DNA of 64,000 bases from IMG/VR virus record IMGVR_UViG_3300037189_023253, positions 38,608 to 102,607 of that record; one strand, written 5' to 3'. A model generated the notes under the pieces. The model saw only the letters and a list, made by a program, of their open reading frames with translations. It made no database searches and was not told the DNA's origin. Below, in pieces: positions 8,938 to 16,756 of the stretch. The DNA comes from a virus. How positions within the stretch are numbered: the first letter of the stretch is position 1; each line of letters begins with the position of its first letter. Made by a program: the position numbers and the translations under genes.

Positions 8938-9213
8938 ATGGCTAACCGCCTGATCGATCAATGGATCATCGATTGGCGCTGTAATAAAACACTATTTTGT
9001 TTTGAATTGATCGGGACCGCAAGCAGCATCTGTGCTTCGGTCCTGGTTAGCTTTTGGCCAAACGTGATCGACCTTTCTTGGGTCTTTATTTTTTGGATGA
9101 TCGGCAGCGTGTTCTTAGCCACCAGCGCATGGATGAGAGCAACAGCGTGGCCGATGTTTTTAATGGTAACTTATACGATTTTTAACGCGGTTGGGTTGTA
9201 TAATACCTTATGA
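8938..9213 (+). CDS. small integral membrane protein
   Basis: A 91-residue hydrophobic protein with three likely membrane spans (residues about 18-40, 44-64 and 70-90) after a short charged head. It begins one base after the preceding stop and overlaps the next start by four bases (ATGA). No family recognised with confidence. Its place in the replication-side operon gives no clear hint of role. Confidence 0.6.
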   Translation: MANRLIDQWIIDWRCNKTLFCFELIGTASSICASVLVSFWPNVIDLSWVFIFWMIGSVFLATSAWMRATAWPMFLMVTYTIFNAVGLYNTL

Positions 9214-10214
9214 CCAAATGGATCTTCATAACCGGAGGGTGTGGCTATATTGGTAGCCACATTGCTGCCCATCTAAAAAGCACCACCGATCACAGCGTGA
9301 TGCTGATCGACAAAAAAGCAGCGGTGTTACCGCATATTACAAAATACTGTGATTTGTTTGCCGACGAAGATCTAACCAGCAATGTGGTATTACAGGCCAT
9401 AAGCAGCTATCGACCGGATACCATCATACACTGTGCGGAGGAGTTAGGCCCGACAAAATCCCTGCTTGATCCAATATCGATCTGGGAAAACAACGTTATC
9501 AAATCGGTTGAGCTGTTAAAATACGCAGCAGAATTTGGTATCAATAAATTCATATTCTTCAGCACCGCCGATGTATATGCTAATTTAGATTCTCCTAAAA
9601 ATGAAAATTGTCAGCTCTTACCGTTGAAATCAAACAGCCGATCAAAGCTCAGCATCGAATATCTACTGCGCGATTGTTACATTGCGCATGGAATTAGCAG
9701 CATAAGTTTTAGAACTTTTAATGTTTCCGGTTCTCACAATCTGTACGATCTAGGTCACCTACAGAACGCACCGTTTTTGGTACCAAAAATGATGGAAAGT
9801 GCAGCATTTGGTAAGAAACTTGAGATCTTTGGAAATGATTTCAACACAAAGGATGGCACAGCAATTCGAGATTATCTCCATGTCATGGATCTTGCCGAAG
9901 CCGTTGAGCAATCCATAGATTGGTTAGATTCCAATCCAGGTGCCTATGCAATGAATCTCGGTAGCGGCGCTGGCACTAGCGTGCAGGAAATGGTCGATCT
10001 ATCGGAATCACTGCTGGGAAAAAATCTACCATACTTTTATGGTGATTGGCGCACCGGTGATCCTCCGATTAGCATTGCTGATATTTCTGCCATCGGTGAT
10101 TCAATTGGATGGAAACCAAAAAGAACCAATACTGATATAATATTAGATTCATATAAATGGTACAGCAGCAGAACCTATCAGGAAACGATAGCAGCTGGTC
10201 TCCATTACCATTGA
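9210..10214 (+). CDS. UDP-glucose 4-epimerase-like extended SDR protein, catalytic Tyr absent
   Basis: The 334-residue protein has the extended short-chain dehydrogenase fold of GalE. The NAD-binding TGGCGYIGSH lies at residues 8-17, FFSTADVY holds the serine-region motif, and the substrate half carries RDYLHVMDLA and LGSGAGTSV. The usual YxxxK catalytic pair is altered: lysine 146 is present in RSKL, but position 142 is asparagine instead of tyrosine. It may therefore bind nucleotide sugar without normal epimerase chemistry, or use another residue. It could supply sugar to the nearby glycosyltransferases. A short hairpin follows the gene. Confidence 0.75.
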   Translation: MTKWIFITGGCGYIGSHIAAHLKSTTDHSVMLIDKKAAVLPHITKYCDLFADEDLTSNVVLQAISSYRPDTIIHCAEELGPTKSLLDPISIWENNVIKSVELLKYAAEFGINKFIFFSTADVYANLDSPKNENCQLLPLKSNSRSKLSIEYLLRDCYIAHGISSISFRTFNVSGSHNLYDLGHLQNAPFLVPKMMESAAFGKKLEIFGNDFNTKDGTAIRDYLHVMDLAEAVEQSIDWLDSNPGAYAMNLGSGAGTSVQEMVDLSESLLGKNLPYFYGDWRTGDPPISIADISAIGDSIGWKPKRTNTDIILDSYKWYSSRTYQETIAAGLHYH

Positions 10215-10218
10215 TCAG

Positions 10219-10236
10219 AAGACCCTTAGTGGTCTT
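10219..10236 (+). terminator. short hairpin after the epimerase-like gene
   Basis: AAGACC (10219-10224) pairs with GGTCTT (10231-10236) around a 6-base loop, just after the stop at 10214 and before the polymerase gene. Weak but well placed. Confidence 0.4.
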
Positions 10237-10289
10237 ATTGATGATATCAAACAAAACAAGTATTTTAAACTCATTATAGGAGTTATCCA

Positions 10290-12536
10290 ATGTATGTAGA
10301 TGCGTTCTTGGAACGAGAAAAAAATCAGATACTTGTTGCCGAACGGGACAAGAACGGGAATCGCCAGTTTCGTGAATACCCGGCAAAATACATAGCATAT
10401 TGGCCCAGCCCACGGGGGAAGATTCCCAATATACATGGACAGCTTTGCGATAAATTCCAGACCAACAAGCTCAAGGAATTCCAGCGCGAAACCAGCATGC
10501 TGGCAAAAAGCCAGTTACATGAGAGCGACATCAATCCAATATTCCGCTGCTTGTATGACAACTACAAGGGAGCACCAAGTCCCGATCTGCATCTTGCATT
10601 TTTCGACATTGAGGTTGACTTTGACCCGGAGCGCGGCTTCTCAAGCCCTGATGATGCATTTGCACCGATCACGGCTATCTCCGTGTATTTGAACTGGTTT
10701 GATCGCAACTTCACCATGGTGCTCAAGCCGAAAGGATTAAGCGTTGAGGATGCCCAGGAAATCGTTAGCAACTTTGACGACACGGTTTTGTGTGCCACAG
10801 AAAAGGAGATGTTGGAAGTATTCCTCAACTTGATTGAGGATGCTGACATCCTATCGGGCTGGAACTCCGAGGGCTTTGATATCCCTTACATACACAATCG
10901 AATCGTTCAACTGCTTGGTAAGGAAGAAACCCGCAAGCTGTGCCTGTGGAACAAACTTCCAAAGCGACGTGAGTACGAAAGCTACGGGCGAGATACCATT
11001 ACATATGATCTCGTCGGTCGGATACACATGGATTATCTACAGCTTTACCGCAAGAACACCTATCACGAGATGCATAGTTATCGGCTTGATTTCGTGGGAG
11101 AATATGAGGTCGGTGATAAGAAAATACACTATGAAGGTAGCTTAGATAAGCTTTATAACAATGATTTTGCAAAGTTTATCGAATACAATCGGCAGGATGT
11201 CATGCTGCTGGTTAAAATTGACCGAAAAAACAAATTCATTGAGCTCAGCAGCAACCTCGCACATGAAAATTGTGTGTTGTTAGGAACTACCATGGGTGCC
11301 GTAGCATTGATCGATCAGGCCATTGTTAATGAAGCACATGATCTAGGAATGGTGGTACCAAATCGCAAGAGAGACGAGTCTGAACGAGAAACGTATGGCG
11401 GTGGCGACGACGATGATAATGACGACAGTGACGTTGGCATTACCGGTGTGGCCGGCGCATACGTTGCCGATCCCAAGGAAGGCATGCACGACTGGATCGG
11501 TGGTGTTGATATCAACTCACTGTATCCGTCGGCGATTCGTGCCCTAAACATGAGCCCTGAAACAGTGATCGGCCATATACGTCCAGAATACACCGATAAG
11601 CTGATCTACAAGCGCATGAAGCAGGAAAAGAAAAGCTTTGCTGATGCATGGAGCGGTATGTTTGGCACATTGGAATACAACCAGGTGATGAACCAGGATC
11701 TCACGCCAATAACCGTGGATTTTGAGGACGGGTCAACATCCACGGTTTCGGCAAGTGAGCTGTATGATTTGGTATTTAAAAGCGGCAAGAGGCTGATCAT
11801 ATCAGCAAATGGCACGCTGTTTACGCTTGATAAAAAGGGCATCATACCCGGATTGTTGGCTAGATGGTATGCTGAGAGAAAGCAGCTACAGGCTGAAATG
11901 AAGAAATACGCCAAGATGGCAGACGAGGAGACCGATCCAGACAAGCGAGCGGAGTATAAAAAGCTTACGGATTTCTATGACCAACGACAGCTGATCAAGA
12001 AGATCCTGCTGAACAGCCTCTACGGCGCTATCGGTAATCCCGGTAGTCGATGGTATGATCCTAGAGTTGCACAAAGCGTTACGCTAAGTGGACGTTGCAT
12101 CGTCAAGCACATGCAGGGTAAGATCAACGAGATCATCACCGGTGATTACAACCATGTTGGTATTTCCTGCATCTATGGAGACACTGACTCGGTTGATTCT
12201 GCGTCAATCATCGAAACCTCAGTCGGAAAAAGAACCATCGAAGATCTGTTTCTGAATGGTAGTTTATTCTGGAATGACGGAGACAAAGAGTATTCTGTTA
12301 ATGACCAAATCAAATTAATTGGATATGATCATTCCTCGAAAACCACCGATTGGACCACGTATAATTACGTATATCGTCATAAGGTATCTAAAAAGAAATA
12401 TCGAGTTAATACCTCAGATGGCAAAAGCGTGATCGTCACTGCTGACCATTCGATCATGGTAGTCACCGACGATGGTCGGCTTGTTAGCAAGAAGCCAACG
12501 GAACTTTCGGTCGGTGATAAAATAATTTCGTTGTGA
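10290..12536 (+). CDS. polB: DNA polymerase B N-terminal part fused to split-intein N half
   Basis: Residues 1-633 are the N-extein of a T4 gp43-type family B polymerase. Exo I FDIEVDF is near 105, Exo II SGWNSEGFDIPYI near 190, Exo III YNRQDVML near 300, motif A DINSLYPS near 406, motif B KKILLNSLYG near 570 and motif C YGDTD at 629-633. From serine 634 (base 12189) the sequence becomes an intein N half of 115 residues, with an A-block (SIIETSVGKRTIEDLF) and a B-block (TADHSIMV). It then stops at 12536. The C half and remaining polymerase lie at 13615. Function requires trans-splicing. An RBS-like ATAGGAG precedes 10290. Confidence 0.93.
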   Translation: MYVDAFLEREKNQILVAERDKNGNRQFREYPAKYIAYWPSPRGKIPNIHGQLCDKFQTNKLKEFQRETSMLAKSQLHESDINPIFRCLYDNYKGAPSPDLHLAFFDIEVDFDPERGFSSPDDAFAPITAISVYLNWFDRNFTMVLKPKGLSVEDAQEIVSNFDDTVLCATEKEMLEVFLNLIEDADILSGWNSEGFDIPYIHNRIVQLLGKEETRKLCLWNKLPKRREYESYGRDTITYDLVGRIHMDYLQLYRKNTYHEMHSYRLDFVGEYEVGDKKIHYEGSLDKLYNNDFAKFIEYNRQDVMLLVKIDRKNKFIELSSNLAHENCVLLGTTMGAVALIDQAIVNEAHDLGMVVPNRKRDESERETYGGGDDDDNDDSDVGITGVAGAYVADPKEGMHDWIGGVDINSLYPSAIRALNMSPETVIGHIRPEYTDKLIYKRMKQEKKSFADAWSGMFGTLEYNQVMNQDLTPITVDFEDGSTSTVSASELYDLVFKSGKRLIISANGTLFTLDKKGIIPGLLARWYAERKQLQAEMKKYAKMADEETDPDKRAEYKKLTDFYDQRQLIKKILLNSLYGAIGNPGSRWYDPRVAQSVTLSGRCIVKHMQGKINEIITGDYNHVGISCIYGDTDSVDSASIIETSVGKRTIEDLFLNGSLFWNDGDKEYSVNDQIKLIGYDHSSKTTDWTTYNYVYRHKVSKKKYRVNTSDGKSVIVTADHSIMVVTDDGRLVSKKPTELSVGDKIISL

Positions 12537-12547
12537 GTCACAATACA

Positions 12548-12582
12548 GCTTCTATTGTGAATAAATAACTCATAATAGGAGC
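12548..12582 (+). promoter_or_regulatory. hairpin hiding the endonuclease RBS, late box in its loop
   Basis: Bases 12548-12560 pair with 12570-12582 as a 13-bp stem with two G-U pairs. The 3' arm contains the TAGGAG ribosome site of the gene at 12590. The 9-base loop plus the end of the 5' arm reads GAATAAATAAC, a T4-late-type box. A read-through transcript would fold and hide the site. One started from the late box would lack the 5' arm and be open. This matches the known scheme of T4 I-TevI. Confidence 0.65.
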
Positions 12583-12589
12583 GCACAAC

Positions 12590-13633
12590 ATGCCAAAGAA
12601 AATTGATAACATCAACGATGTAATAAACTCGGCTAGGTTTAGAGCGGCTACAAATCAACGATCATATTCTCAATGTGAGGTAGAAAAAATACATCTGTTG
12701 TATGATCATATGATATCAAACGGAGTGTCGTTGATTAACGGCTACTATAATACATTTTGTCATCTCGTATCATACGACTTAACTGACCTTGTTAAGAGAT
12801 TTGAGTTTCTACGACAAAACAGTACCAGACGGACAAAAGAAACATATCTAGCTAGATATGGCAACGAAATTGGCCTACAGAAATGGGAATCTTATCGAGA
12901 AAAACAAAGAGTCAAAAATCTTTATGAAACCAAGAAAGAAAAATACGGTTGGTCTGTTGAGGAATTTAACGAATTCAACCGGTCTCGTGCCGTAACTGAG
13001 GAAAAATGTATAGCTCGTCATGGAGAGCAGGTTGGCTTGCAAATATGGGAAAATTATGTTGAGAAACAACGATACACTAATAGTTTAGATTATTTTGAAA
13101 AGAAATATGGACTAGATGGATACCAAAAATGGATCGACTACAATCGAGAAAAAGGTAAATCTTCTAACATAGATTGGATAATGTCAAAATATTCAGTAGA
13201 TAAACCAACAGCTTTAGAGATTTTATCCAAAAGAAACAATAGAGGATATACTTCTAAAGCCGAACTCGCATTTATTGAATATGTAGAAAGTAGTCTCGGT
13301 GCATCACTTCAATATACAGTAAAGACCAATCAGTTTTGTATATGGAGCGATGTATTACAATCTCCATGTTTTTATGATATAACAGATAGCCAACGTATGA
13401 AAATTATCGAATTCAATGGCGATTATTGGCATTGTAACCCATTGATGTATGAATCTTCATTTTATCATCCTCATCTCAAAATGACAGCTAACAATATTTG
13501 GGCATATGATTATGCTAAGATAAAAGCTGCGACTACCAGGGGGTTTTCGTTAAAAATAATCTGGGAAACTGACTTTATAAAAGATGCAAACACTGTAATA
13601 AAAGAGGTTGTAAAATGGTGGAACATTACCTAA
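12590..13633 (+). CDS. free-standing homing endonuclease between split polymerase halves (Vsr/EDxHD-like)
   Basis: The 347-residue protein has three N-terminal repeats of the form (R/K)(Y/H)G...GLQKWE.Y..KQR (residues about 87-200), probably DNA-contacting. The C-terminal third contains KAELAFIEYVE, FYDITDS, EFNGDYWHCNP and LKIIWETDF. That order of E, D, H and E/D residues is like the Vsr-related nucleases found with fractured split-intein genes in marine metagenomes. No LAGLIDADG, GIY-YIG or HNH motif was seen. It overlaps the next start by 19 bases. Expression appears gated by the hairpin at 12548-12582. Confidence 0.75.
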   Translation: MPKKIDNINDVINSARFRAATNQRSYSQCEVEKIHLLYDHMISNGVSLINGYYNTFCHLVSYDLTDLVKRFEFLRQNSTRRTKETYLARYGNEIGLQKWESYREKQRVKNLYETKKEKYGWSVEEFNEFNRSRAVTEEKCIARHGEQVGLQIWENYVEKQRYTNSLDYFEKKYGLDGYQKWIDYNREKGKSSNIDWIMSKYSVDKPTALEILSKRNNRGYTSKAELAFIEYVESSLGASLQYTVKTNQFCIWSDVLQSPCFYDITDSQRMKIIEFNGDYWHCNPLMYESSFYHPHLKMTANNIWAYDYAKIKAATTRGFSLKIIWETDFIKDANTVIKEVVKWWNIT

Positions 13634-14628
13634 CAGAGATATCATCTGTTGAGGATCTTGGAGAATTTGAAGACGAATATGTATATGATGTAGGAATGGA
13701 TACGAATCATCCATATTTTTTTGCTAACGGATTACTAGTCCATAATTCTGGGTATTTCAGCGCATATCCAGTGATGAAGGATCAGCCAGAGTTCAAGGAC
13801 TTTGAGTGGACCAAGGAAAATGTCAGCAAGCTGTATGATAACATCGGCGACATGACCAACGACAGCTTTCCTGAGTTTATGAACCAAGCATTCAATTGTC
13901 CAGAAGAAAACGGTGCCATCATCCGTGCTGCTCGAGAATTGTGTGCATACAAGGGATTATTCATCACCAAGAAGCGTTATGCGGTGCTGATTTATGACAA
14001 GGAAGGCAAGCGCAAGGATCTCAACGGCAAGCCTGGCGAGATCAAGGCCATGGGATTGGATCTCAAGCGCAGTGATACTCCTAAGATCGTGCAAGACTTT
14101 CTCAGTGATATATTAACGGCAGTATTGACCGGATCGACAGAAGGTGACATTCATGAGAAGATACTGGCATTCCGTAAGGAATTCCGTAGCTGGCCTGGAT
14201 GGTTGAAAGGTTCACCGAAACGTGCTAACAAGATAACCCATTATCAAAACGTGATGGACTTACAGGGAAAGGTTGATTGGAAGGGCGGAGACCCAGGCAA
14301 GAAATCCATGATACCCGGGCATGTTCTTGCATCCATTAATTGGAACAGGCTCAAAAAAATCCATAATGATCATTACTCCATGCCAATCCAAGATGGATTT
14401 AAGGTTATCGTTTGCAAGCTTCGGCCAAATCCCAGCGGGTTAACTTCGGTGGCATATCCGGTCGATGAGCTTACCTTGCCAGAATGGTTCAAGCAGTTAC
14501 CATTTGATGATGAGGCCATGGAAGCCGCATTGATAGACAAGAAGGTAAAAAACCTCCTCGGCGTGCTGCGCTGGGATTTAGATTCAAACAAAGAAGCCAA
14601 CAGTTTTGGTGATCTATTCAGTTTTTAA
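13615..14628 (+). CDS. polB: split-intein C half fused to DNA polymerase B C-terminal part
   Basis: Residues 1-44 are the intein C half: DEYVYDVGMDTNHPYFFAN (F block) and GLLVHN with terminal asparagine 44. Serine 45 (base 13747) starts the C-extein with SGYFSAYPVMK. Joined to YGDTD of the N part, this restores YGDTDSGYFSAY, a normal motif C region. The C-extein is 293 residues and includes the KKRYAVLIYD palm/thumb segment. Total spliced polymerase would be 926 residues, near T4 gp43 (898). The start overlaps the endonuclease gene, so translation may be coupled. Confidence 0.92.
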   Translation: MVEHYLTEISSVEDLGEFEDEYVYDVGMDTNHPYFFANGLLVHNSGYFSAYPVMKDQPEFKDFEWTKENVSKLYDNIGDMTNDSFPEFMNQAFNCPEENGAIIRAARELCAYKGLFITKKRYAVLIYDKEGKRKDLNGKPGEIKAMGLDLKRSDTPKIVQDFLSDILTAVLTGSTEGDIHEKILAFRKEFRSWPGWLKGSPKRANKITHYQNVMDLQGKVDWKGGDPGKKSMIPGHVLASINWNRLKKIHNDHYSMPIQDGFKVIVCKLRPNPSGLTSVAYPVDELTLPEWFKQLPFDDEAMEAALIDKKVKNLLGVLRWDLDSNKEANSFGDLFSF

Positions 14629-14638
14629 TGGAGTCAAC

Positions 14639-14821
14639 ATGACCGACCTTGTAATGTTTTATCGTGTAGATCAGGGCTTTAGCGGCACGCTACTTAATAC
14701 CAAGATGACGGATCATCCAGATCTGTCATACGTACTTGTCCGTGATGCTGATATCGGAAAACTCATAGTCTACAGGGTATTAAAGAATAACCTGATATAC
14801 CTAAGAAAGGAACCCAAATGA
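14639..14821 (+). CDS. small phage protein downstream of polymerase
   Basis: A 60-residue protein with ATG 14639 preceded by GGAG, 10 bases after the polymerase stop, and an ATGA overlap with the next gene. It is probably a compact beta-rich fold (VLVRDADIGKLIVYRVL near residues 34-50). The slot between polymerase and clamp in T4 holds regA and clamp-loader genes, but this sequence resembles neither. Confidence 0.6.
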   Translation: MTDLVMFYRVDQGFSGTLLNTKMTDHPDLSYVLVRDADIGKLIVYRVLKNNLIYLRKEPK

Positions 14822-15030
14822 CCGCAAAAAATGTATCCAGGCCTCCGAAATATACTCCAGAGGAGCTCAAGATCCTGGTTGACGCGCTCAACGGAGCACC
14901 GTCATATTTGTCTAAACGCTTCATACTCAAGTATCTCTGCGGATGGAGCGACGAGCTCGTAGAAGAGAACATGAAACTGAAGATGCAAGAAGAACAACAG
15001 AAGAAGATCGGAGATATACAATGGCGTTAA
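14818..15030 (+). CDS. small helical phage protein before sliding clamp
   Basis: A 70-residue helical protein with a basic N-terminus (SRPPKYTPEELKILVDAL) and a charged coiled C-terminal helix (VEENMKLKMQEEQQKK). It overlaps the previous stop by four bases and the clamp gene start by ten, so it belongs to the polymerase-clamp operon. No family recognised. Confidence 0.6.
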   Translation: MTAKNVSRPPKYTPEELKILVDALNGAPSYLSKRFILKYLCGWSDELVEENMKLKMQEEQQKKIGDIQWR

Positions 15031-15764
15031 AAGATTACTTTAAGGATCTCACCACTTACGTTGCAACGGCTGGATTTTTTGAAAAGATCAAGGTTACCGC
15101 AACCGCAAAGGAGATTTCCGTTGAGGCGATGGAAAAGGAAAAGGAAGTTATCCTCAAGGGCAAATTCAGTAAGCCATTGGTGGATCTCGAGGGCGAGTTT
15201 GGCCTGAGCAATCTCAGCCTGTTGCAAACCATTTGCAATGACCCGGAATTTACCGCCAAGGAAAGCGTGATGACCGTGGTATATGAAACCAAGAATGCCG
15301 AACGCATACCAACCGAGCTGGCCTATGAGAATCGAAGCAAAAGCTACATCAACTATCGTTTCATGAGCAAGACCTTGGTTCCTGAGCAGCCTAAGTTCTT
15401 GGAACCCAAGTGGGACGTGGTCGTTACACCGACCAAGGCTAATGTTCAGCAGTTTGCATGGGCTGCTAATGGTCTCGCTGCGTATGAACAGTATTTCATT
15501 CCGAAGATCGTTGATGGCGATCTCAAGTTCTTCATTGGCGAGGACAATGCAGCCACCCAGCGAGGAGGTGTTGTGTTTGCTAGCGAACGTGCTGAAACGT
15601 TTGAAAGCCAGCACAAGTGGAAGATCCAGCAGGTCCTGGGAGTTCTCAAGGCAGCCGATACTTGTGATTGTGAAATGGCGTTTTCAACCAAAGGAGCCAT
15701 CCAGATCACGCTGAACACCGGTGTTGGTACCTATCGATACATCTTCCCGGCCAAGGTTCGCTGA
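15021..15764 (+). CDS. sliding clamp DNA polymerase accessory protein (gp45-like)
   Basis: A 247-residue protein, close to T4 gp45 (228). It starts with a helix and strand (DYFKDLTTYVATAGFFEKI), then has VDLEGEFGLSNLSLLQTI near residues 53-70. The latter matches the D-L-x-G-F-L-x-x-L-S-L-V region of gp45. The ring protein would tether the polymerase and, in T4-like phages, also activate late promoters. ATG 15021 follows CGGAG. It ends the replication operon and is followed by a clear terminator. Confidence 0.75.
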   Translation: MALKDYFKDLTTYVATAGFFEKIKVTATAKEISVEAMEKEKEVILKGKFSKPLVDLEGEFGLSNLSLLQTICNDPEFTAKESVMTVVYETKNAERIPTELAYENRSKSYINYRFMSKTLVPEQPKFLEPKWDVVVTPTKANVQQFAWAANGLAAYEQYFIPKIVDGDLKFFIGEDNAATQRGGVVFASERAETFESQHKWKIQQVLGVLKAADTCDCEMAFSTKGAIQITLNTGVGTYRYIFPAKVR

Positions 15765-15847
15765 TTAACCACAGGTTTATTCCCATCGCCCAAGCCTAAA
15801 TAACACGCATGGGCGAGAGTATATTAGACGTTATATTTGGTAGTCTA

Positions 15848-15878
15848 AAAAACGCCTGCTATATCGGCAGGCGTTTTT
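15848..15878 (+). terminator. rho-independent terminator after the clamp gene
   Basis: AAAACGCCTGC pairs with GCAGGCGTTTT around a 7-base loop (15860-15866) and ends in a T run. It sits 84 bases after the clamp stop. The rest of the 15765-15979 gap holds a weak 7-bp inverted repeat (TCGCCCA/TGGGCGA) around a CCTAAATAA box near 15796, and a TTGACA at 15955. Confidence 0.85.
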
Positions 15879-15979
15879 ACCATCCAAACTGCAATAAGCA
15901 TTCAATGGTGCAAATATACCGATCTCTCTGCGTCAATGATAGGTATGATTGTTGTTGACATAATCAAGACCGCTGTTGG

Positions 15980-16756
15980 ATGGGAAAAATGCAATATAGA
16001 TCAATCTGGATATCAGACATACATCTTGGTACGAAAGGTTGCAAAGCCGACCAGCTTTGCAACTTCCTCAAGAACAACAATTCGGATACATTATATCTTG
16101 TTGGGGATATCGTCGACGGGTGGAAGCTCTCAAGGGGGTGGCATTGGCCGCAAGAACACAGCAATGTTGTTCGCCGGCTTCTAACCAAAGCCAAGAGAGG
16201 CACAAAGATCCACTACATCATCGGAAACCATGACGAGTTCCTTCGTCCGTGGTTGAAGCATGGTCTTAAGACCGGAAATATCACCATATCAAATCAAATC
16301 ACACATGTTGATTTACATGGTAGAAAATGGCTTGTCACACACGGTGATCTATTCGATCAGGTAACACGGCATTGGAAATGGGTGAGCATTCTAGGTGATC
16401 GTGCATATACTGCCCTGTTGATGTGCAACGGTCTAATACATCGTATGAGAAAACTAGTTGGTCTTGGTTATTGGAGCCTCAGCAAATATGTCAAAGGTAG
16501 AACCAAGCAAGCACTTAATTTCATTTACAAATTTGAAGAACATTTGGCTGCACATGCCAAGAGCAATGGATTCCACGGTGTCATATGCGGACACATACAT
16601 ACTCCTGCCATAAAAGCAATAAATGGCGTGATTTATGCCAACGACGGCGATTGGGTAGAAACATGCTCGGTTCTTGTCGAAACGCATGATGGCGAATTTC
16701 AGCTATTATTGTTGGAAGAGGACGGATCAATGAAGATCTATGAAACATACAAATGA
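15980..16756 (+). CDS. LpxH-like metallophosphoesterase
   Basis: The 258-residue protein shows the calcineurin-type metal motifs in order: SDIHLG near residue 12, GDIVDGW near 42, GNHDEF near 80, THGDLFD near 119, and GHIHTP near 198. The layout matches UDP-2,3-diacylglucosamine hydrolase relatives, which act in lipid A synthesis; many homologues have other phosphodiester substrates. It overlaps the following glycosyltransferase by four bases, so the pair probably acts on one envelope or glycan pathway. No strong ribosome site is seen at 15980; ATG 15992 is an alternative start. Confidence 0.75.
   Translation: MGKMQYRSIWISDIHLGTKGCKADQLCNFLKNNNSDTLYLVGDIVDGWKLSRGWHWPQEHSNVVRRLLTKAKRGTKIHYIIGNHDEFLRPWLKHGLKTGNITISNQITHVDLHGRKWLVTHGDLFDQVTRHWKWVSILGDRAYTALLMCNGLIHRMRKLVGLGYWSLSKYVKGRTKQALNFIYKFEEHLAAHAKSNGFHGVICGHIHTPAIKAINGVIYANDGDWVETCSVLVETHDGEFQLLLLEEDGSMKIYETYK

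What the first reader, a model, noticed from the sequence alone, without database searches (positions are those of the whole stretch)
10290..14628. DNA polymerase fractured at motif C by a split intein with a free endonuclease gene between the halves
The first ORF ends after YGDTD plus a 115-residue intein N half. A 347-codon endonuclease gene follows. The third ORF is a 44-residue intein C half ending in HN, then SGYFSAY. Rejoining gives a normal polymerase of 926 residues. Splicing in trans must therefore make the replicase. Split inteins with an intervening endonuclease are known from metagenomic fractured genes and this is an apparently complete example in the replicative polymerase, at its catalytic motif.
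Basis: partly seen in the sequence, partly recalled or inferred. Interest (0 to 1): 0.85.

Follow-up and report, generated by a model that had tools for sequence, protein, structure and literature searches.

The report
Split-intein DNA polymerase of jumbo phage
A large phage carries its copying enzyme in two pieces that a self-splicing protein element should join, with the gene that spreads the element lying between them; close relatives of this arrangement are already described, so it is a good new example of a known kind.

Summary
ORF 1 (10290-12536) is a T4-type PolB up to YGDTD plus a 115-aa intein N half. ORF 2 (12590-13633) is a 347-aa endonuclease. ORF 3 (13615-14628) is a 44-aa intein C half ending HN, then the rest of PolB. 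Five relatives, 87-94% identical beside the site, have it empty with 0 nt missing, so rejoining to 926 aa is right. The class-1 "cysteine-less" intein motifs are present. The nearest solved structure is the Aes123 PolB1 split intein, whose trans-splicing is published. The nuclease domain has the Vsr/I-Bth0305I fold. A 452.8-kb contig with the identical locus shows no other complete polymerase of four families searched. One relative shares the module at 98.8% DNA identity with flanks at 85% and 76%, the edges at the splice junctions: the mark of recent homing. The arrangement is known (Aeromonas Aes phages, Campylobacter CP21, Pseudomonas MIJ3). I add many IMG/VR cases, two insertion points two codons apart, copies without endonuclease, contiguous copies, and inverse charge covariation of the halves. 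Splicing in this virus is inferred, not shown. Verdict: real and well explained; a new member of a known kind.

The parts
10290..12188 (+). PolB N extein (633 aa), ends at motif C YGDTD
   Evidence: empty-site relatives join here with 0 nt gap
12189..12536 (+). Intein N half, 115 aa plus stop; Ser1, NX motif R63-H64, N3 T84-A-D-H87; no cysteine
12537..12589 (+). Spacer with Shine-Dalgarno-like TAGGAG before the endonuclease ATG
12590..13633 (+). Free-standing endonuclease, 347 aa: mostly helical first part with repeated sequence pattern, then C-terminal Vsr-like nuclease domain (about 217-347) with invariant D263, E274, D278, H281, K310
13615..13746 (+). Intein C half, 44 aa, ends LLVHN; overlaps the endonuclease ORF by 19 nt
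13747..14628 (+). PolB C extein (293 aa, +1 Ser) plus stop

Best explanation
The phage's replicative PolB is encoded in two pieces. The 115-aa and 44-aa ends associate (probably helped by opposite charge), fold into one class-1, cysteine-free intein and trans-splice: Ser1 attacks after YGDTD, Ser+1 of SGYF takes over the acyl group, the terminal Asn cyclises, and a 926-aa polymerase is released. The endonuclease between the halves is a homing enzyme with a Vsr-like nuclease domain. It should cut intein-free PolB alleles of co-infecting relatives at the motif-C codons, so that repair copies the whole 1,558-nt module (IntN, endonuclease, IntC). Shown here by sequence or model: exact junctions, motifs, predicted fold of the nuclease, empty sites, a recently transferred module, purifying selection. 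Inferred: splicing, cutting and its site.
For: Empty sites with 0 nt gap in 8 loci from 5 contigs, 87-94% identical to the window's anchors beside the site (L093/L172, L094/L176, L095, L169/L171, L174). Motifs in unique relatives (56 unique, 3 odd or distant ones dropped): Ser1 53 of 53, N3 TxxH 53 of 53, NX-type His (after R, K or N) 51 of 53, terminal HN 50 of 53 (KN in 3), +1 Ser or Thr 53 of 53. 9HTH: E 1.3e-10 for IntN alone, 2.1e-18 for the joined halves. Aes512 has the same junctions, DTD|S...HN|S. Trans-splicing of the natural Aes123 PolB1 and of the LCGC14 PolB2 split inteins is published (passages). Endonuclease C-terminal domain: Foldseek top three are Vsr twice and I-Bth0305I (prob 0.96-0.99); VIA Z 11.8, 10.5. 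L096: module 18 mismatches in 1,558 nt, no indel; last upstream extein mismatch 12185, first downstream 13755; flanks 85.3% (95 nt), 75.7% (PolC), 75.9% (downstream). dN/dS window versus L181: IntN 0.07, HE 0.14, IntC 0.06. HE and IntC 34% GC against 46-47% for PolB. Charge of IntN residues 59-end against IntC: r -0.91 in 51 unique split inteins, -0.64 by contrasts on a tree.
Against: No splicing, cutting or expression data for this virus. Natural Aes123 splices only about 30% in vitro, because of aggregation. Foldseek E-values for the nuclease are weak (0.1-0.24; none under 0.001), VIA rows for mitochondrial ribosome and FASTKD4 proteins follow closely (Z 9.2-10.0), and phmmer against PDB found no relative of the endonuclease. 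Charges are of opposite sign in only 32 of 51 split inteins (10 same sign, 9 with a zero), and six contiguous inteins show the same trend (r -0.79, p 0.06), so the charge result is no proof of a trans reaction. Contigs are metagenomic, and G001 is not shown to be complete.
Confidence: 0.93

Rival explanations
1. The two polymerase pieces work as a non-covalent two-subunit enzyme and the intein is dead or only a docking aid.
For: Aeromonas gp43 is also split at a second place (gp43A / gp43B) with a GIY-YIG gene between and no intein annotated there; Atu_ph07 PolB is annotated as two ORFs with 18 nt between.
Against: The splice-junction residues are kept in relatives and both halves are under purifying selection; YGDTD, the metal-binding motif (recalled), would be left with intein attached on both sides.
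Confidence: 0.04
2. A second, intact polymerase does the copying and this locus is only a parasite's platform.
For: G001 is not shown to be complete; it has a 173-aa DnaE-like ORF.
Against: No other match of PF00136, PF00476 or PF03175 in 452.8 kb; the DnaE match is a short piece; PolB exteins are conserved.
Confidence: 0.02
3. Assembly chimera or sequencing error broke one polymerase gene.
For: Metagenomic contigs.
Against: Same layout in diverged contigs and in isolated phages.
Confidence: 0.01

Closest known systems
Aeromonas phage Aes123/Aes508/Aes512 PolB1 (gp43B1 - VSR endonuclease - gp43B2)
   Same: Same gene order in Aes512 and same junctions DTD|S...HN|S; related endonuclease (28.6% aa); IntN 32%; splicing and crystal of Aes123 published.
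   Different: Aes512 polymerase has an extra gp43A/B split; the window's PolB is of a jumbo-phage lineage.
Pseudomonas phages MIJ3 / PA5oct PolB split intein (PMC6892783, passages)
   Same: MIJ3: same site YGDTD|S, split intein, PolB 48% identical.
   Different: 562-aa intervening ORF called HNH; IntN / IntC charge polarity reversed (-9 / +4 against +5 / -9).
Campylobacter CP21 PolB1 and Klebsiella KP13-7 / phiKp_21 PolB
   Same: Split PolB with a related endonuclease between (29-34% aa).
   Different: CP21 PolB is annotated in more fragments; KP13-7 uses the YGD|TDS site.
Fractured genes of Dassa et al. 2009 (paper not held; recalled, cited in papers read)
   Same: Split intein with a free endonuclease gene between the halves; I recall that I-Bth0305I belongs to the endonuclease family described there.
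   Different: Other host genes, as far as I recall.
Nanoarchaeum Neq Pol split intein (passage)
   Same: Naturally split cysteine-less intein in a DNA polymerase.
   Different: Thermophilic; archaeal and without an intervening endonuclease, as I recall.

Membership tests
Class-1 Ser1 ('cysteine-less') intein | Ser1, N3 TxxH, penultimate His and terminal Asn, Ser/Thr +1 | tested here: met
Class-1 Ser1 ('cysteine-less') intein | NX-motif His preceded by Arg/Lys (PMC10189870, passages) | tested here: met
   R63-H64 of IntN
Class-1 Ser1 ('cysteine-less') intein | Protein splicing | not testable with these tools
   In print for homologues only
Fractured gene with split intein | Two genes, each with one intein half, flanking a free endonuclease gene | tested here: met
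Fractured gene with split intein | Exteins rejoin to a normal host protein | tested here: met
   0-nt gap in empty alleles
Vsr-like (I-Bth0305I / EDxHD) homing endonuclease | Vsr-like nuclease fold | tested here: met
   AlphaFold2 model, Z 11.8 Vsr and 10.5 I-Bth0305I over residues 220-347; Foldseek E weak
Vsr-like (I-Bth0305I / EDxHD) homing endonuclease | Conserved acidic/His catalytic set | tested here: inconclusive
   D263, E274, D278, H281, K310 invariant in 32 of 32, E225 nearly so; not superposed on the I-Bth0305I catalytic residues
Vsr-like (I-Bth0305I / EDxHD) homing endonuclease | Cuts the empty PolB allele | not testable with these tools
   Transfer tract is indirect evidence
Aes123 PolB1 insertion allele | Insertion between Asp and Ser of DTD|S | tested here: met
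   Window; Aes512 junctions read (Aes123 itself not read; its Asp-1 is in PMC13014065 passages)

The most novel reading that the evidence does not exclude
Motif C of jumbo-phage PolB is the seat of a turning wheel: empty site, split intein with endonuclease, split intein with decayed or no endonuclease, and contiguous mini-intein all occur among relatives, at two points two codons apart. The charges of the two halves drift together in inverse proportion and even swap sign between lineages, so that alleles become mutually orthogonal and co-infecting phages do not cross-splice their replicases.
Probability: 0.15. Interest if true: 0.6.

Novelty: new member of a known kind. Interest (0 to 1): 0.38.

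Why it matters
It adds a complete, intact case in a jumbo phage, with empty sister alleles and a recently transferred sister module. Homing of a whole fractured-gene module, and the dependence of replication on trans-splicing, could therefore be tested directly. It is also a candidate cysteine-free split intein for protein engineering, and the charge covariation suggests a rule for choosing mutually orthogonal pairs.

Tried and rejected
Rejected: (1) assembly error - same layout in diverged contigs and isolates. (2) Contiguous intein with nested endonuclease - stop at 12534 and a separate start for the C half. (3) Group I intron in the window - none at Rfam gathering scores, though 8 of 11 relatives scanned carry one. 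(4) Charge pairing as proof of the split state - six contiguous inteins show the same trend. (5) A second polymerase - only a 173-aa DnaE-like ORF.

Led nowhere: Pfam found nothing for the window's endonuclease; phmmer against PDB found no relative of it; a scan with the Salicola intein found nothing; a paper search on charge, orthogonality and coevolution gave one unrelated paper. In one search the PolN rows for L181 and L183 are invalid, because a group I intron lies just upstream there and breaks the frame; they were not used. Counts include several loci from one contig; unique-intein counts come. In 'window-type' at the YGDTD|S site (19) also takes in inserts of about 2.2 kb with a longer ORF that the window's endonuclease did not match (I read the ORFs of L260, L263, L274, L278 and MIJ3), because any hit of the pooled endonucleases counted. 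In one search the label 'splitT+HE' includes endonuclease remnants. L006, L008, L009 and L087 were left out of motif, charge or tree counts, because their anchors were broken or distant.

Full report
OBSERVATION. ORF 1 is PolB to YGDTD (633 aa) plus 115 aa; ORF 2 is 347 aa; ORF 3 is 44 aa ending HN plus 293 aa of PolB. Exteins total 926 aa. The C-half start overlaps the end of the endonuclease ORF by 19 nt. In relatives 76 of 83 endonuclease ORFs measured (loci, not unique) also overlap the nearest C-half start; the other 7 are 1 to 889 nt apart. This suggests translational coupling. Pfam recognises DNA_pol_B and Intein_splicing in ORF 1 over the cut-offs, and in ORF 3 below them.

WHERE IT IS. 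The window is 38608-102607 of a 102,607-base virus record. Bases 9000-16500 are identical to part of a 452,799-base IMG/VR contig, G001 (L092). Among phage records the best PolB matches are in jumbo phages: Pseudomonas MIJ3/PA5oct and kin, Salicola SCTP-2, Sinorhizobium Phosso, Agrobacterium Atu_ph07 (40 of 2,584 records listed). G001 has only the split PolB, no PolA match, and one 173-aa ORF resembling a piece of DnaE. Its only matches to the Pfam intein model are the two halves.

INTEIN. The marks of a class-1 Ser1 intein are present: Ser1, R63-H64 (the NX motif described in PMC10189870, passages), T84-A-D-H87, terminal HN and +1 Ser; neither half contains a cysteine. The best solved relative is 9HTH, the Aes123 PolB1 intein. 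Aes123 PolB1 is a natural split intein of Aeromonas phage PolB; trans-splicing is published, with about 30% efficiency for the natural pair (PMC11923092, passages). PMC12707363 (passages) tested split PolB inteins of CP21 and of marine metagenomes and reports near-complete splicing for LCGC14; I did not see a splicing yield for CP21. PMC6892783 (passages) reports the split PolB intein of MIJ3 from its sequence.

ENDONUCLEASE. An alignment of 32 relatives has invariant D263, E274, D278, H281 and K310 and repeated Gly/Trp/Tyr/Gln patterns around residues 82-118 and 136-172. The AlphaFold2 model (mean pLDDT 86; about 46-60 in the first 60 residues) matches Vsr and I-Bth0305I over residues 220-347 (Foldseek prob 0.96-0.99 but E 0.1-0.24; VIA Z 11.8 and 10.5, with mitochondrial ribosome and FASTKD4 proteins at 9.2-10.0). 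The part before residue 217 was barely tested by that search. Endonuclease and C half are 34% GC against 46-47% for the polymerase.

MOBILITY. Scanning IMG/VR with the endonuclease gave 259 relatives; of the best 80 kept, 80 had an IntN match and a PolN match. Of 284 loci from all scans and named phages, 257 had both polymerase anchors: 83 empty, 167 split, 7 contiguous (several loci share a contig). Five contigs 87-94% identical to the window beside the site are empty with 0 nt gap. On a quick tree of 143 different PolC proteins, well-supported branches alone force 12 changes between empty and occupied; the window's row lies in an unresolved trio with an empty allele (L093, the shortest distance) and L010. 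L096 (same contig as L010) carries the module at 98.8% DNA identity (18 of 1,558 differ, no indel), but its flanks are 85.3% (PolN, 95 nt available), 75.7% (PolC) and 75.9% (downstream). The last upstream extein mismatch is 4 nt before the intein's first base; the first downstream one is the ninth base of the C extein. This is the pattern expected of recent homing.

SELECTION. Against L181, dN/dS is 0.07 (IntN), 0.14 (endonuclease) and 0.06 (IntC). These are single-pair estimates, and dS for IntN is above 1.

VARIETY. Relatives use two points two codons apart: YGDTD|S with Ser+1 (window, MIJ3, and Aes512) and YGD|TDS with Thr+1. Among 84 unique inteins: at YGDTD|S, 19 with a long endonuclease ORF and 3 with no trace; at YGD|TDS, 45 with a long ORF, 9 with a remnant, 2 with no trace, 6 contiguous (L196, counted there as 'no trace', had a weak remnant at E 2e-4). 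L183 is a split intein with 155 nt between the N-half stop and the C-half ATG and no trace of an endonuclease.

CHARGE. In 51 unique split inteins the net charge of IntN residues 59-end and that of IntC covary inversely (r -0.91; independent contrasts -0.64, sign-flip p 0.0001). The signal is strongest in residues about 52-91. Extein controls are flat (contrasts -0.14 to 0.06), but IntN residues 1-58 show a weaker trend too (raw -0.51, contrasts -0.32, p 0.04). With 78 inteins r is -0.90, contrasts -0.58. The sign differs by lineage: the window is +5 / -9, MIJ3 -9 / +4; 32 of 51 pairs have opposite sign, 10 the same, 9 a zero. Six contiguous inteins show the same trend (r -0.79, p 0.06), so the pairing may serve folding in general.

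VERDICT. A real, intact, recently mobile split-intein polymerase with its presumed homing gene; a new member of a documented kind. Splicing here is inferred from motifs and from published homologues.

Noticed in passing
L183:7963-8174, L181:8910-9128, L054:5168-5382, L088:5029-5245, L020:4903-5141, L182:9264-9477, L177:9066-9280, L179:3386-3600: Group I introns (RF00028) in 8 of 11 relatives scanned, downstream of where the PolN match breaks (about residues 544-583) in those I compared; L183, L181, L054, L088 and L020 also carry the split intein at motif C. The window has none.
   Followed up: partly
L004:7399-9087 (Pseudomonas MIJ3): ORF annotated as HNH endonuclease carries zinc-ribbon-like repeats and an EYNGLYWH core like the Vsr-type enzymes, so the HNH label looks doubtful; read by eye only.
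   Followed up: partly
L183, L196, L236, L197, L199, L200, L202, L212, L226, L222: Split inteins whose endonuclease is lost (L183) or reduced to a remnant; 8 of the 9 remnants are from its C-terminal part, L222 from its start.
   Followed up: partly
L285:1958-4927 (Agrobacterium phage Atu_ph07): PolB annotated as two ORFs separated by 18 nt, no intein annotated; could be a true split or a sequencing error.
   Followed up: no
G001:421711-421911: 173-aa ORF matching part of DNA_pol3_alpha in the 452.8-kb contig.
   Followed up: partly
window 12590-13746: Endonuclease and C half are 34% GC against 46% for the window.
   Followed up: yes
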